Origin: a virus
Virus record (IMG/VR): IMGVR_UViG_3300048102_000256
Location: 1-22,033 of that record
Direction: 5' to 3' (one strand)
Length of the DNA stretch: 22,033 nucleotides
The position numbers and the translations under genes are program-made. The notes below the pieces were generated by a model. That model made no database searches and was not told where the DNA came from. It was given only the letters and a program-made list of their open reading frames with translations. Shown piece after piece: positions 8,483-11,499 of this stretch. Within the stretch, counting starts at the first letter, position 1, and each line of letters opens with the position of its first letter.

Positions 8483-8866
8483 ATGACAAACGATGACGTA
8501 ACAAGGAAGTTAGGACACGTCGAGAAGGAACTAGCGGCACACGGAAGTGCCTTGGTTAGTACAGCCCAGCAGATGAGCCACCTAGCTCATAGATCAGACG
8601 AGCGCCTCGAGTACATACGCGAGCGGTTCGACGATCTGCAGGAGGCTGGCAGGGCTATCTCGGCAATGTTAGATCGAAGGCATGAGGAGATGCTGTCGGC
8701 TCGCCGTAAGATCATCTCCTTCGCATCCACTGTGCTTATCACGTGCTTCAGTGCGCTGTGGATGGCGATCCTTGCTCCCATGCAAGAGGAGATGGCGATA
8801 CTAGAGAGGAGAATGATTGATGCTGAGAAGCGTATTGCTGTGTATCTTCATAGCGACAACGACTAG
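8483..8866 (+). CDS. Coiled-coil protein with one membrane segment (lysis candidate)
   Basis: A 127-residue protein. Residues 1-75 are charged and helical with coiled-coil character. One hydrophobic segment spans about 77-99 (I-I-S-F-A-S-T-V-L-I-T-C-F-S-A-L-W-M-A-I). A further charged helix of about 28 residues ends the protein. The R-R-K cluster just before the segment predicts the N-terminus in the cytoplasm and the C-terminus in the periplasm. GGAG six bases before the ATG is the ribosome site. The gene lies between the last ejection protein and a spanin-like lipoprotein whose start is nested in its 3' end, a position where podoviruses often carry lysis genes. It could be a holin or a scaffold partner of the lipoprotein; no family was recognised. 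Confidence 0.75.
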   Translation: MTNDDVTRKLGHVEKELAAHGSALVSTAQQMSHLAHRSDERLEYIRERFDDLQEAGRAISAMLDRRHEEMLSARRKIISFASTVLITCFSALWMAILAPMQEEMAILERRMIDAEKRIAVYLHSDND

Positions 8867-9197
8867 CGGATGTAGTGCGATAGCGCCACTAGCCAAGGAT
8901 GCCCTCCTAGGAGGCGCTAAACAGGGCATAGAGGCACGTGCTAACATAAGTAAGGGCGATGCAGAGGGTCAGGACAGCGTCGCTCAGAACGCCAATACGG
9001 CCGTCTCAGTGACGTCCGGTCAGAGAGAGGTATTCGAGGGTCCAGTAGGGACAGTGGTAAACGAGGCAGGACTGCCGATACACATACTGCTGTTGCTAGT
9101 ACTGTTGGCAGGCTGGGCGATACCTTCGCCGGAGGAGATGGGACACGGTATTGTTAGGATTATCCGTGCCCTAACGGGTAGGCCTAGTCCAAGATAA
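8820..9197 (+). CDS. Putative unimolecular spanin (lipoprotein with C-terminal membrane segment)
   Basis: A 125-residue protein with a short signal sequence ending in T-T-S-G-C. The lipobox Cys is residue 18, so the mature N-terminus would be anchored in the outer membrane. About 65 polar residues follow, then a very hydrophobic segment at about 84-102 (L-P-I-H-I-L-L-L-L-V-L-L-A-G-W-A) and a basic tail with four Arg. A lipobox at one end and an inner-membrane anchor at the other is the layout of one-component spanins such as T1 gp11 (similar length), which fuse the two membranes at lysis. A TTG at 8817 is possible, but the ATG at 8820 has GAGAGGAGA seven bases upstream. The gene is nested 47 bases into the previous gene and ends inside the opposing protease gene. 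Function is inferred from topology. Confidence 0.72.
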   Translation: MLRSVLLCIFIATTTSGCSAIAPLAKDALLGGAKQGIEARANISKGDAEGQDSVAQNANTAVSVTSGQREVFEGPVGTVVNEAGLPIHILLLLVLLAGWAIPSPEEMGHGIVRIIRALTGRPSPR

Positions 9198-10413
9198 GCG
9201 GACGTCGTACGTCTGTTGACACGGCCCGTGCCCTGAGTGGGGCTGTGCCGTCGTCGTGCTCGTCGTGGATGAGCGACAGGTCGTAGCGTATGCGGTTCCA
9301 GTGATAGGCTGAGTCAGCACGGTAGCGGTCACCCGCCAGCGTCTCACCCCACTGCTCACCGAACCTCTCGCCGCATGTCATCAGGCTGTTGTAGAAGTGG
9401 GTCTTGTCTCCGTACGACATGATGTCGTCGGTGCGTCCACCTATGCACTGGTCGTAGTCCCCATGCCCGAACTCTGGGAACACGTAACCTATCGCAGGGT
9501 AGGAACTGTTGTTGGGACCGTGCGCCAGACCGACCACGTGACCTAGCTCATGCAGGTCTACGTTACCGGAGCAGTTAGAGAACGCGAAGCCAGCCCTGTC
9601 GAACGTGCGATTGGGGTACGCCACGCCGCAGGTGTCGGGGTATGTGGTTCCCCGTCCTAGGCCAATGTCAACCGGCCGGCTACGGGTGAAGCTCTCGCCT
9701 AGGCGCAGGTCAATGTACGGCGTAACCCACACCTCCTTCAGCACGAAGCGTATGTAGATACGGTCACGCTCCAGCGCAGTGTTCCATTGTGCGACACGAC
9801 GCATGGCTGATTCGTAGCGTGAGCCACTGCCTAGCTGGTACGGCTCGACGTCTCTCTCGTAGTAGGTCAGCAGTACCTCGACTGGGACTACGGCAGTGTC
9901 TCCGTCGCCGTAGTAGATCAAGTCCCAGCCACCGTCTTGCTTGTACCCCATGCAGTCGTAGCCCGCCTCAACTAGACAGCGCGGCTCCTCACGGAACGGT
10001 ACAAGATACTCCTCAGTCCGGCCCGCCACCGTCAGGGTGAGCGAGGCGTAATCCCCTCCCCCATCCCCACGTACGAACAGGGTATTCCCCTCCCGCACGG
10101 CAGACCCACGGTCTAACTCGTAGTCCCACTCGGTGGCGTTGGTGTCGATGAACACCTCAGCCTCGGAGAAGCGGTCAGCCTCCCCCTCTACCACAACGTC
10201 ATCAACCCACACGCACTCAGGAGAGTTGTACTCCTTACGTACCGTCCAGATCTGGTCGCGCAGACGCCACACCTCGGCGTTCGTGTAGCCCTCGGGCACG
10301 TAGATCGACCACTGTATGTGGGAGAACGGCTCCCCGCCACAGCCAGAGCGGAACAGGACGTCCGCTGAGGCCACAGAAGACAGGAGCATTAGTGCGCTAA
10401 GTATTATCTTCAT
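9184..10413 (-). CDS. Secreted metzincin-type zinc metalloprotease
   Basis: A 409-residue protein with a typical Sec signal peptide: M-K, a hydrophobic core about 3-15, cleavage predicted after A-S-A at residue 17. Residues 18-175 form a Cys-containing, beta-rich N-terminal region. The catalytic part (about 180-350) carries H288-E-L-G-H292-V-V-G-L-A-H298, the full HExxHxxGxxH zinc motif of metzincins with Glu289 as catalytic base. Thirty-four residues after His298 come I-M332-S-Y-G, a good Met-turn. Cysteines flank the site (262, 281, 323, 347), suggesting disulfides and hence an exported enzyme. The start has AGGGAG upstream and overlaps the preceding 57-aa membrane gene by 17 bases. It is the last minus-strand gene and overlaps the spanin-like gene by 14 bases tail to tail. 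Substrate is unknown: cell-envelope, surface or secreted host proteins are possible. Protease class is confident; subfamily is not assigned. Confidence 0.85.
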   Translation of the reverse strand: MKIILSALMLLSSVASADVLFRSGCGGEPFSHIQWSIYVPEGYTNAEVWRLRDQIWTVRKEYNSPECVWVDDVVVEGEADRFSEAEVFIDTNATEWDYELDRGSAVREGNTLFVRGDGGGDYASLTLTVAGRTEEYLVPFREEPRCLVEAGYDCMGYKQDGGWDLIYYGDGDTAVVPVEVLLTYYERDVEPYQLGSGSRYESAMRRVAQWNTALERDRIYIRFVLKEVWVTPYIDLRLGESFTRSRPVDIGLGRGTTYPDTCGVAYPNRTFDRAGFAFSNCSGNVDLHELGHVVGLAHGPNNSSYPAIGYVFPEFGHGDYDQCIGGRTDDIMSYGDKTHFYNSLMTCGERFGEQWGETLAGDRYRADSAYHWNRIRYDLSLIHDEHDDGTAPLRARAVSTDVRRPLILD

Positions 10414-10570
10414 GCTTCTCCCTCTGCTCGACGAGGCAGTCGTACGCCAACTGAAGGGCGTATCGTGCCATGTTAGTCCACCGTGCGTACTTCTGTATGA
10501 CGCTGTGTAGGTAGACGATGTACAGGCCTGCGGCCACTAGGGACGCGGATAGTAGGTATATGCTGTTCAT
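10397..10570 (-). CDS. Small single-membrane-segment protein (57 aa)
   Basis: M-N-S then a hydrophobic segment at about residues 4-21 (I-Y-L-L-S-A-S-L-V-A-A-G-L-Y-I-V-Y-L), followed by a basic and then acidic tail (Q-K-Y-A-R-W, E-Q-R-E-K-H-E-D-N-T). Its ATG overlaps the stop of the nucleotide-hydrolase gene by ATGA, and the protease gene starts inside its 3' end. It is thus tightly coupled between the two. It could assist export, be a small holin-like or anti-host membrane peptide, or mainly couple translation to the protease. No family was recognised; reading frame, overlaps and topology support it as a real gene. Confidence 0.65.
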   Translation of the reverse strand: MNSIYLLSASLVAAGLYIVYLHSVIQKYARWTNMARYALQLAYDCLVEQREKHEDNT

Positions 10571-10881
10571 CGCTTCAGCTCCTCTGGGTGGTACTTGAGT
10601 TGGTGGAGCATCTGCAACAGGTTACATAGAGCGTGGCCTAGGTGAGAGCGTCCAGACTCGGGGTCCAGATCCTCGCCTGCTTGCCATGCGCTCATGTGCC
10701 GCATCAGGCAGGCGTAGCTCACCGTCCAATCGGTGGGCCTCTTCCAGTTGTCACGCTCGTACTTACTAGCCCCGTACTCCAGCACCCGTGCCGCCTCTTC
10801 GAGAAGCTCCATGGGTACGAGGGAGTAGTCGGGCTTGCCTTCGTTGTATCGTAGGCTACGGTCAGTGGATGATTGGCTCAT
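10567..10881 (-). CDS. dATP/dGTP diphosphohydrolase-type protein (DUF5664/MazZ-like N-terminal domain)
   Basis: A 104-residue protein matching the pattern of the phage family once called DUF5664, now the dATP/dGTP diphosphohydrolase N-terminal domain. Seen here are R11-Y-N-E-G-K-P near the N-terminus, then L-E-E-A-A-R-V-L-E-Y-G-A-S-K-Y (about 26-41) with N-W after it, R61-H, and the C-terminal E70-D-x-D-P-E-S-G-R-S-H-L-G-H-A-L-C-N. Characterised relatives such as MazZ of cyanophage S-2L convert (d)GTP or dATP to the monophosphate and pyrophosphate, and act in nucleotide pools or in making 2-aminoadenine DNA. I chose the ATG at 10881, with GAGG upstream, over the ATG at 10896, which lacks a site. 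It overlaps both neighbours. No PurZ-like gene is in the window, so base modification cannot be claimed. Confidence 0.78.
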   Translation of the reverse strand: MSQSSTDRSLRYNEGKPDYSLVPMELLEEAARVLEYGASKYERDNWKRPTDWTVSYACLMRHMSAWQAGEDLDPESGRSHLGHALCNLLQMLHQLKYHPEELKR

Positions 10882-11137
10882 CGTCGTAATCCTCATTCAG
10901 ATACTGCATGATGATGGCAGTCTTGCCTAAGTCCAGCATGGTGTTGAGTCCGTCGTTGCCTGTCTCGCTGTTGCCACACAGGGCGACACCAACGTCAGGT
11001 ACGAGGGCCACACCAGCCACCTCTACGTCAGCTCCTTCTCGCTCGAACTCCTCAAGCAGGTCAGCGAACTGCCGCAGTGCTTCGGAGGCGGGTACCTTGT
11101 CTTCCTTCTTGCCGCCGGGAAACTCTAAAACACTCAT
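10862..11137 (-). CDS. Small acidic protein of unknown function (91 aa)
   Basis: A 91-residue acidic protein. A basic lysine-containing start (G-G-K-K-E-D-K) leads into a helical acidic stretch (A-L-R-Q-F-A-D-L-L-E-E-F-E-R-E). A beta-rich, valine-rich middle follows (V-A-G-V-A-L-V-P-D-V-G-V-A-L), then a helix and an acidic tail (N-E-D-Y-D-D-E-P). No catalytic or membrane motif is seen. The start has GGAG eight bases upstream and overlaps the preceding stop by ATGA. The 3' end overlaps the nucleotide-hydrolase gene. I do not recognise the family; the location suggests a nucleotide or replication accessory, which is inference only. Confidence 0.72.
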   Translation of the reverse strand: MSVLEFPGGKKEDKVPASEALRQFADLLEEFEREGADVEVAGVALVPDVGVALCGNSETGNDGLNTMLDLGKTAIIMQYLNEDYDDEPIIH

Positions 11138-11295
11138 TCGTCTATCTCCAAGTAGTCGTTGAAGGATGCTCGTCGGTCGCAGATGTGGTCGCGCAGTGCC
11201 TCGACAAGTACGTCTATGTCTAGGTCCAGCACCTCCACGATCTCGTCGGGGTTCATGCGTGCTACGATCTCTGCTATCAGTCCGTCGTTACTCAT
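11134..11295 (-). CDS. Small acidic helical protein (53 aa)
   Basis: A 53-residue acidic protein starting M-S-N-D-G. Its helical body contains I-V-E-V-L-D-L-D-I-D-V-L-V-E-A-L, a heptad-like leucine/valine pattern that could dimerise. It resembles short phage proteins with an N-P-D-E-I-V-E-V-L motif, whose function is unknown to me. The frame is open back to 11388, but the ATG at 11295 is preferred because AGGAG lies nine bases upstream and it overlaps the end of the upstream membrane-peptide gene. The stop forms ATGA with the next start. Confidence 0.65.
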   Translation of the reverse strand: MSNDGLIAEIVARMNPDEIVEVLDLDIDVLVEALRDHICDRRASFNDYLEIDE

Positions 11296-11395
11296 CTCCG
11301 GAATCTCCTGCTCCATAAAGCATGAAGGCCAAGAGGCAAGCCGAGAATGTAGCTCCGGCGGCAAGTGCGGCGTAGTAGTATAGTCCATGACTCAT
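11288..11395 (-). CDS. Tiny membrane peptide (35 aa)
   Basis: M-S-H-G then a hydrophobic, small-residue-rich segment at about 5-28 (Y-Y-Y-A-A-L-A-A-G-A and S-A-C-L-L-A-F-M-L), and a short acidic tail ending G-D-E. GGAGG lies just upstream of the ATG. The start overlaps the preceding 35-aa gene's stop by ATGA, and the next gene starts eight bases before its own stop. It is too short to judge by coding statistics; ribosome site, overlap and a single clean membrane segment support it. Function is unknown. Confidence 0.55.
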   Translation of the reverse strand: MSHGLYYYAALAAGATFSACLLAFMLYGAGDSGDE

Positions 11396-11499
11396 GGCTC
11401 CCTCCGACTGAACATCTTCTCAGCGTCAACCGAATCCGTTAGGGTTAATATAGCCAGTATGGCAACGGTGGCAGTGAATGTCAATATACCAGTAATCAT
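11392..11499 (-). CDS. Tiny membrane peptide (35 aa)
   Basis: M-I-T-G followed by a hydrophobic Thr/Ile/Leu-rich segment at about 2-22 and a charged tail (D-A-E-K-M-F-S-R-R-E-P). The ATG overlaps the stop of the phosphoesterase gene (ATGA) and its stop overlaps the next tiny gene the same way, so two membrane peptides sit in tandem, both translationally coupled. The basic tail after the segment predicts N-out/C-in, opposite to the acidic tail of its partner. Function is unknown; a paired holin-like or membrane-inhibitor role is speculation. Confidence 0.55.
   Translation of the reverse strand: MITGILTFTATVAILAILTLTDSVDAEKMFSRREP

What the first reader, a model, noticed from the sequence alone, without database searches (positions are those of the whole stretch)
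9184..10413. Phage-encoded exported metzincin metalloprotease next to the lysis genes
The protein has a Sec signal peptide, a complete HExxHxxGxxH zinc site (His288, His292, His298, Glu289), a Met-turn (I-M332-S-Y-G) and paired Cys, so it should be an active exported zinc protease. Such enzymes are known mainly as secreted bacterial or animal proteins, and I know of no standard role in T7-like phages. It is the terminal gene of the replication-strand operon and abuts the spanin-like gene. Possible roles are removing envelope proteins for release, cutting surface receptors to stop re-adsorption, or damaging neighbouring cells. The role is inference; the motifs are seen.
Basis: partly seen in the sequence, partly recalled or inferred. 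Interest (0 to 1): 0.78.

Follow-up and report, generated by a model that had tools for sequence, protein, structure and literature searches.

The report
Phage family of exported zinc proteases
This phage gene encodes an exported zinc protease of the ADAM and snake-venom fold; it belongs to a previously unnamed family found in about 80 uncultured phage contigs from several lineages and almost absent from bacterial genomes, which suggests that these phages cut proteins in their host's cell envelope during infection.

Summary
Window:9184-10413(-) encodes a 409-aa protein with a Sec signal, a full HExxHxxGxxH zinc site (H288/E289/H292/H298), a Met-turn (M332) and 8 Cys. AlphaFold2 (pLDDT 81) gives a metzincin fold over residues 171-386: CpaA Z 16.3, adamalysin II Z 12.2. 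An Ig-like module precedes it.

The gene is not an oddity of one phage. A profile search found 79 viral contigs with relatives; 76 carry the motif and the other 3 end upstream of it. In 32 aligned full-length members every catalytic residue and six Cys are invariant; dN/dS is 0.08-0.29. Cultured phages and plasmids gave no match, and the only full-length bacterial hit lies on a virus-like contig.

In the window's clade the gene fills an accessory slot at the end of the replication operon: type A metzincin (5), a second metzincin type (4), or neither (8). It is far more divergent (30-40% identity) than its neighbours (67-92%). Adjacency to the spanin is specific to this clade.

Best reading: an accessory exported envelope protease made with the replication genes. 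Receptor or surface-protein removal is its likeliest benefit, then lysis help. Substrate and timing are inferred. Precedents: Listeria prophage Mtz, T5 Llp.

The parts
9184..10413 (-). Exported metzincin protease P0001, 409 aa (type A)
   Evidence: ORF and motifs; 32-member alignment; AF2 model and fold match
10363..10413 (-). Signal peptide, residues 1-17 (SPI-like, cleavage after VASA)
   Evidence: by inspection; hydrophobic N-terminus in all full-length members
9982..10209 (-). Ig-like beta-sandwich module, residues 69-144, preceded by a small module with C25/C67
   Evidence: AF2 of residues 18-162 alone, pLDDT 90.5; VIA-align best Z 8.4, a common arrangement
9256..9903 (-). Metzincin catalytic domain, residues 171-386
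   Evidence: CpaA Z 16.3, adamalysin II Z 12.2
9520..9552 (-). Zinc site HELGHVVGLAH, residues 288-298
   Evidence: invariant ligands and Glu in 32 of 32 members
9409..9426 (-). Met-turn DIMSYG, residues 330-335
   Evidence: M332 and Y334 invariant in 32 of 32
10397..10570 (-). 57-aa single-TM protein P0004, overlapping the protease start by 17 nt
   Evidence: homologous small ORFs also in relatives without the protease (L012, L015, L017)
10567..10896 (-). Stand-alone N-terminal domain of dATP/dGTP diphosphohydrolase; upstream flank of the variable slot
   Evidence: PF18909 E 6.9e-30; conserved in relatives
8817..9197 (+). u-spanin-like lipoprotein P0002, convergent, overlapping the protease 3' end by 14 bp; downstream flank of the slot
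   Evidence: TSGC lipobox (first letter off the consensus), C-terminal hydrophobic segment, no Cys after the lipid cysteine; PHROG 1804 Rz-like E 0.006
8483..8866 (+). 127-aa coiled-coil protein with one TM segment, possibly lysis related
   Evidence: sequence; no family match above cut-off
11456..11484 (-). Promoter-like site before the five-gene block that ends with the protease
   Evidence: TTGACA-17-CATACT; number of such sites not above chance

Best explanation
The gene encodes a Sec-exported zinc endopeptidase: a signal peptide, an Ig-like module and an adamalysin/CpaA-like metzincin catalytic domain with probably four disulfides. It is made with the replication genes, folds in the periplasm (in some relatives as a lipid-anchored lipoprotein) and cuts host envelope proteins. 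It is an accessory, often-exchanged cargo gene at the end of the replication operon, not a core lysis gene. The benefit I consider most likely is removal of receptors or other surface proteins from the infected cell, so that later and newly released virions are not lost on it. Sub-confidences: metzincin fold 0.95; active protease 0.9; exported and envelope-acting 0.85; accessory exchanged slot gene 0.85; receptor or surface-protein clearance as the main benefit 0.4. Shown by computation: motifs, fold, conservation, purifying selection, slot behaviour. Inferred: activity, timing, substrate, benefit.
For: Zinc ligands, Glu, Met-turn and six Cys invariant in 32 members; metzincin fold; export signal in every full-length member, 29 SPI-like and 5 lipobox; dN/dS 0.08-0.29. 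Accessory slot: of 17 window-clade contigs, 5 have type A, 4 type B, 8 neither; five of the latter have a small exported protein there instead. Protease identity to the nearest slot relatives is 30-40% while the flanking phosphoesterase, dGTPase domain and spanin are 67-92% identical, as expected for a gene under host-specific pressure or frequent exchange. In other lineages it sits by ribonucleotide reductase and replication genes, not lysis genes. Precedent for a lytic phage guarding progeny with an envelope lipoprotein: T5 Llp (PMC9586334).
Against: No activity, timing, location or substrate has been measured. T7 keeps its lysozyme gene among class II replication genes (general knowledge), so operon position does not exclude a lysis role. 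The Listeria metzincin precedent points to lysis (PMC8235301). A periplasmic enzyme would have to reach outer-membrane or surface targets; there is no direct evidence that it cuts receptors. P0001 is a long branch in the family tree.
Confidence: 0.42

Rival explanations
1. Accessory lysis factor: it accumulates in the periplasm and weakens the envelope by cutting lipoproteins, outer-membrane-peptidoglycan linkers or cell-wall enzymes (or by processing the spanin), so that holin, endolysin and spanin release virions faster.
For: Abuts a u-spanin-like gene in the window's clade; Listeria prophage Mtz with Tim makes cells more sensitive to phage lysis in a protease-dependent way (PMC8235301); lipid anchoring in some members fits envelope action.
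Against: It is on the opposite strand from the spanin; the spanin adjacency is absent in the other lineages; close relatives with the same spanin lack the gene altogether (L012, L015, L017, L020).
Confidence: 0.27
2. Periplasmic counter-defence or host takeover: it destroys host periplasmic proteins that would harm the infection (envelope-located antiphage proteins, proteases, stress sensors), not receptors.
For: Location with replication genes; accessory and exchanged like anti-defence genes.
Against: No direct evidence; no known defence protein is linked to it here, and no target was tested.
Confidence: 0.16
3. Action after lysis: the enzyme is released and acts outside, on neighbouring cells, debris, biofilm protein or organic matter, benefiting later infection rounds.
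For: Most members are SPI-type and soluble once processed; Mtz-Tim conditioned medium affected neighbouring cells (PMC8235301).
Against: Five members, three of them in the window's clade, are lipoproteins tethered to the producing cell; dilution in water makes the benefit small.
Confidence: 0.1
4. A decayed or stray host-derived gene without function in the phage.
For: P0001 is a long branch and alone scores under Pfam cut-offs. One type B relative, L026, is frameshifted.
Against: All catalytic residues and 8 Cys intact; purifying selection across the family; almost no bacterial relatives.
Confidence: 0.03

Closest known systems
CpaA, Acinetobacter secreted metzincin glycoprotease (MEROPS M72, PDB 6o38)
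   Same: Best structural neighbour (Z 16.3, rmsd 3.2, 185 residues) and best PDB profile hit (E 0.047); Ig-like modules before a C-terminal metzincin domain (PMC7542363)
   Different: 17% identity; CpaA has four Ig-like domains and a membrane chaperone CpaB; NCBIfam CpaA model 13 bits against a cut-off of 750
Adamalysin/reprolysin (M12B): snake-venom metalloproteinases and ADAMs
   Same: Catalytic fold over residues 171-386 (Z 10-12); 28 of 32 members match Pfam Reprolysin_3
   Different: 14-19% identity in the structural alignments; no prodomain or disintegrin; viral, with an N-terminal Ig-like module
Mtz-Tim, Listeria prophage metzincin and TIMP-like lipoprotein (PMC8235301)
   Same: Phage-borne, Sec-exported metzincin with the extended zinc motif, accessory in phages
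   Different: Gram-positive temperate phages; Met-turn AIMLD; next to holin-lysin; paired with Tim. No exported partner gene is conserved next to this family
T5 Llp superinfection-exclusion lipoprotein (PMC9586334)
   Same: Phage-encoded exported envelope protein of a lytic phage; model for the proposed benefit
   Different: Llp blocks its receptor by binding; it is small and has no protease domain
PHROG 18894 (unknown function)
   Same: 5 of 32 members and the type B L021 match its metzincin-like stretch (E down to 1.4e-6)
   Different: Only a catalytic-core stretch matches; P0001 does not; 521-position profile

Membership tests
Metzincin superfamily | HExxHxxGxxH zinc motif | tested here: met
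   H288, E289, H292, G295, H298 invariant in 32 of 32
Metzincin superfamily | Met-turn downstream | tested here: met
   M332 and Y334 invariant
Metzincin superfamily | Metzincin catalytic fold | tested here: met
   AF2 model; residues 171-386 align end to end with adamalysins, Z about 12
Metzincin superfamily | Three His around one zinc over the Met-turn in three dimensions; proteolysis | not testable with these tools
   model coordinates not available; no assay
Reprolysin-like (Pfam Reprolysin_3) | Profile score over the curated cut-off | tested here: inconclusive
   P0001 itself does not match at E <= 1; relatives L011, L013 and L029 exceed the cut-off
CpaA / MEROPS M72 | Sequence-model match | tested here: not met
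   13.2 bits against cut-off 750 in NCBIfam
CpaA / MEROPS M72 | Four tandem Ig-like domains and a CpaB-type membrane chaperone | tested here: not met
   one Ig-like module; neighbouring P0004 is 57 aa and is present without the protease
Mtz-Tim pair | Adjacent TIMP-like exported partner in the same operon | tested here: not met
   neighbours in the other lineages are RNR, small cytosolic-looking proteins or structural proteins; the spanin in the window's clade is on the other strand
Superinfection-exclusion protein | Blocks later adsorption or injection | not testable with these tools
   needs adsorption and superinfection assays
u-spanin (neighbour P0002) | Lipobox, C-terminal TM segment, no periplasmic Cys (PMC6139136) | tested here: met
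   sequence by inspection (the lipobox TSGC departs from the consensus at its first letter); criteria; lysis function untested

The most novel reading that the evidence does not exclude
Lytic phages of several lineages carry a dedicated, virus-specific family of exported metzincins that shave protein receptors or surface glycoproteins off the infected cell: enzymatic superinfection exclusion, a proteolytic counterpart of the T5 Llp blocking lipoprotein.
Probability: 0.3. Interest if true: 0.85.

Novelty: new variant of a known kind. Interest (0 to 1): 0.64.

Why it matters
Enzymes of the ADAM/snake-venom fold turn out to be a recurrent cargo of uncultured virulent-type phages and almost absent from bacterial genomes, with no name in phage collections. 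If the envelope-cutting reading is right, these phages remodel the outside of their host by proteolysis before lysis, a mode of superinfection control or lysis help not described for virulent phages in the papers searched. The family gives clear tests (E289A mutant, lipobox against SPI anchoring, natural presence/absence pairs) and a source of new, possibly glycoprotein-specific, proteases.

Tried and rejected
P0001 alone found no relatives in viral contigs, cultured phages, plasmids or PDB sequences; single-sequence searches were too weak. Degenerate DNA patterns for the active site found nothing, probably because residues, the first H codon or the spacing were fixed too tightly; what worked was to find relatives through the neighbouring phosphoesterase and then search with their protease alignment. 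The 934-aa virion protein as query failed. tblastn of P0001 and four relatives against 50,697 phage records gave no match, even at E <= 1 for two of them. A bacterial origin was considered and not supported: one GTDB hit, on a contig with ClpX, IscU-like and tandem kelch-like phage genes, and one weak hit among 369 Gammaproteobacteria. The protease tree is unreliable for P0001 (long branches), so no origin is claimed. The Ig-like module match (Z 8.4) is at the level of a common arrangement, so glycan binding is not claimed. Foldseek against viral models gave no metzincin relative among the top rows. Full-text searches for phage plus metzincin, metalloprotease or reprolysin gave one relevant paper, Listeria Mtz. 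P0004 was considered as a dedicated chaperone or inhibitor and rejected because homologous small ORFs occur without the protease.

Full report
OBSERVATION. The ORF at 9184-10413 on the minus strand encodes 409 aa with the stated zinc site and Met-turn. The window is a 22,033-base linear virus record. The N-terminus is a typical signal peptide by inspection, and the first predicted strand begins at residue 18. The ORF overlaps the convergent spanin-like ORF by 14 bp.

SURROUNDINGS. The minus strand carries T7-type replication genes: primase-helicase, PolA, SSB, exonuclease, HNH endonuclease and a metallophosphoesterase. Then follows a block of five overlapping ORFs: 11134-11388, 10862-11137, a stand-alone dATP/dGTP diphosphohydrolase N-terminal domain (10567-10896), a 57-aa TM protein (10397-10570, overlapping the protease start by 17 nt) and the protease. 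A promoter-like site lies before the block, but such sites are not above chance here. The plus strand carries tail and virion genes, a coiled-coil/TM protein and a u-spanin-like lipoprotein.

RELATIVES. Direct searches with P0001 failed. The DNA polymerase gave a few relatives, and the phosphoesterase alignment gave 80 loci. In the nearest of these, the place between the dGTPase-N domain and the spanin is a variable slot. Seventeen contigs show it, counting the window and L028, where only the spanin flank is recognised. Type A metzincins occur in the window, L011, L016, L029 and L013, the last with two catalytic domains in tandem. A second, shorter type B occurs in L018, L021, L027 and, frameshifted, L026. 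Neither is found in L005, L007, L012, L015, L017, L020, L025 and L028; of these L005, L007, L015, L017 and L025 have a small exported protein there (L005 by position and length only). Types A and B align only over the catalytic domain (hhalign E 1e-10).

FAMILY. An alignment of four type A proteins found 79 viral contigs; 76 carry HExxHxxGxxH and the other three end before it. A scan of 84,980 genomes gave one locus, on a contig with ClpX, IscU-like and tandem kelch-like genes, probably viral. A profile search of 369 Gammaproteobacteria genomes gave that one and one weak match. No cultured phage matched. PHROG 18894, of unknown function, matches 5 of 32 members weakly. In 32 deduplicated full-length members the zinc ligands, the catalytic Glu, M332, a further His (H317) and six Cys are invariant, and C25/C67 nearly so. 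Pairwise dN/dS is 0.08-0.29. All have a hydrophobic N-terminal export signal, 29 SPI-like and 5 with a lipobox; the lipobox members L013, L016, L029, L163 and L168 have low-complexity, mostly Pro-rich linkers after it.

STRUCTURE. AlphaFold2 on alignment A5 gave pLDDT 81 and pTM 0.71. VIA-align ranks CpaA first (Z 16.3, 185 residues), then adamalysins and ADAMs (Z 10-12) over residues 171-386; Foldseek agrees (ADAM-8, acutolysin). The N-terminal part, modelled alone (pLDDT 90.5), contains an Ig-like sandwich at residues 69-144 (best Z 8.4), a common arrangement from which no function follows.

CONTEXT IN OTHER LINEAGES. Grouping by neighbours gives several backgrounds: upstream ribonucleotide reductase and downstream a convergent small non-lysis protein (groups 9 and 14); a contig group with exonuclease, protease, structural protein, NrdA and NrdB; and others. 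Lysis adjacency is therefore not general, while location in the replication/nucleotide region is. In the protease tree the backgrounds are intermixed (13 changes against a least possible 5), consistent with exchange, though long branches make it unsafe for P0001.

MECHANISM. Shown by computation: an intact, conserved, exported metzincin under purifying selection in a variable slot at the operon's end, far more divergent (30-40%) than its neighbours (67-92%). Inferred: it is made with the replication proteins, oxidised in the periplasm, and cuts envelope proteins. Accessory status, rapid exchange and variable anchoring fit a host-specific surface target better than a core lysis step, so receptor or surface-protein clearance is put first (0.4) and lysis help second (0.27). 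The lysis rival has the only experimental precedent: Listeria Mtz with Tim increases phage-mediated lysis in a protease-dependent way (PMC8235301). T5 Llp shows that a lytic phage may protect its progeny with an envelope lipoprotein (PMC9586334).

COMPARISON AND NOVELTY. It is a metzincin by motif and fold, reprolysin-like by the profiles of its relatives, and nearest CpaA by fold without meeting CpaA's own sequence and domain tests. It is not an Mtz-Tim pair. The papers searched hold no description of such a family in virulent-type phages, but the library lacks most subscription journals. Verdict: a new, largely viral variant of a known enzyme kind, of good interest, with function untested.

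Noticed in passing
window:10397-10570 (-): Small single-TM protein (57 aa) overlapping the protease start by 17 nt; similar small ORFs occur at the same place in relatives with and without the protease. Role unknown.
   Followed up: partly
window:10567-10896 (-): A stand-alone dATP/dGTP diphosphohydrolase N-terminal domain (109 aa) that also matches PHROGs labelled 'endolysin; inhibits RNA polymerase'; possibly a domain reused as a regulator.
   Followed up: no
L005, L007, L015, L017, L025: slot before the spanin: Relatives without a metzincin carry a small Sec-exported protein (LYLDDGTQ.../LVLDNGET... type) in the same slot, so the slot seems reserved for exported cargo.
   Followed up: partly
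L013:6955-8904 (+): Lipoprotein with two metzincin catalytic domains in tandem and a Pro-rich linker.
   Followed up: partly
L168/L174 (MAG contig JAAERX010000116): Two adjacent metzincin genes next to three tandem kelch-like proteins on a contig with ClpX and IscU-like genes, filed as a Gammaproteobacteria MAG but virus-like.
   Followed up: partly
L026:9011-10013 (+): Type B metzincin split by a frameshift between the zinc site and the Met-turn; real decay or assembly error not settled.
   Followed up: no
window:1679-3373 (+): 564-aa tail-region protein matching PHROG 5107 'amidase' (E 1.9e-21) without any Pfam hydrolase domain; no clear endolysin was recognised among the window proteins tested.
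   Followed up: no
alignment A5, P0001 residues 316-318: An invariant second GHG (His317) between the zinc site and the Met-turn, of unknown role; possibly substrate or metal related.
   Followed up: no
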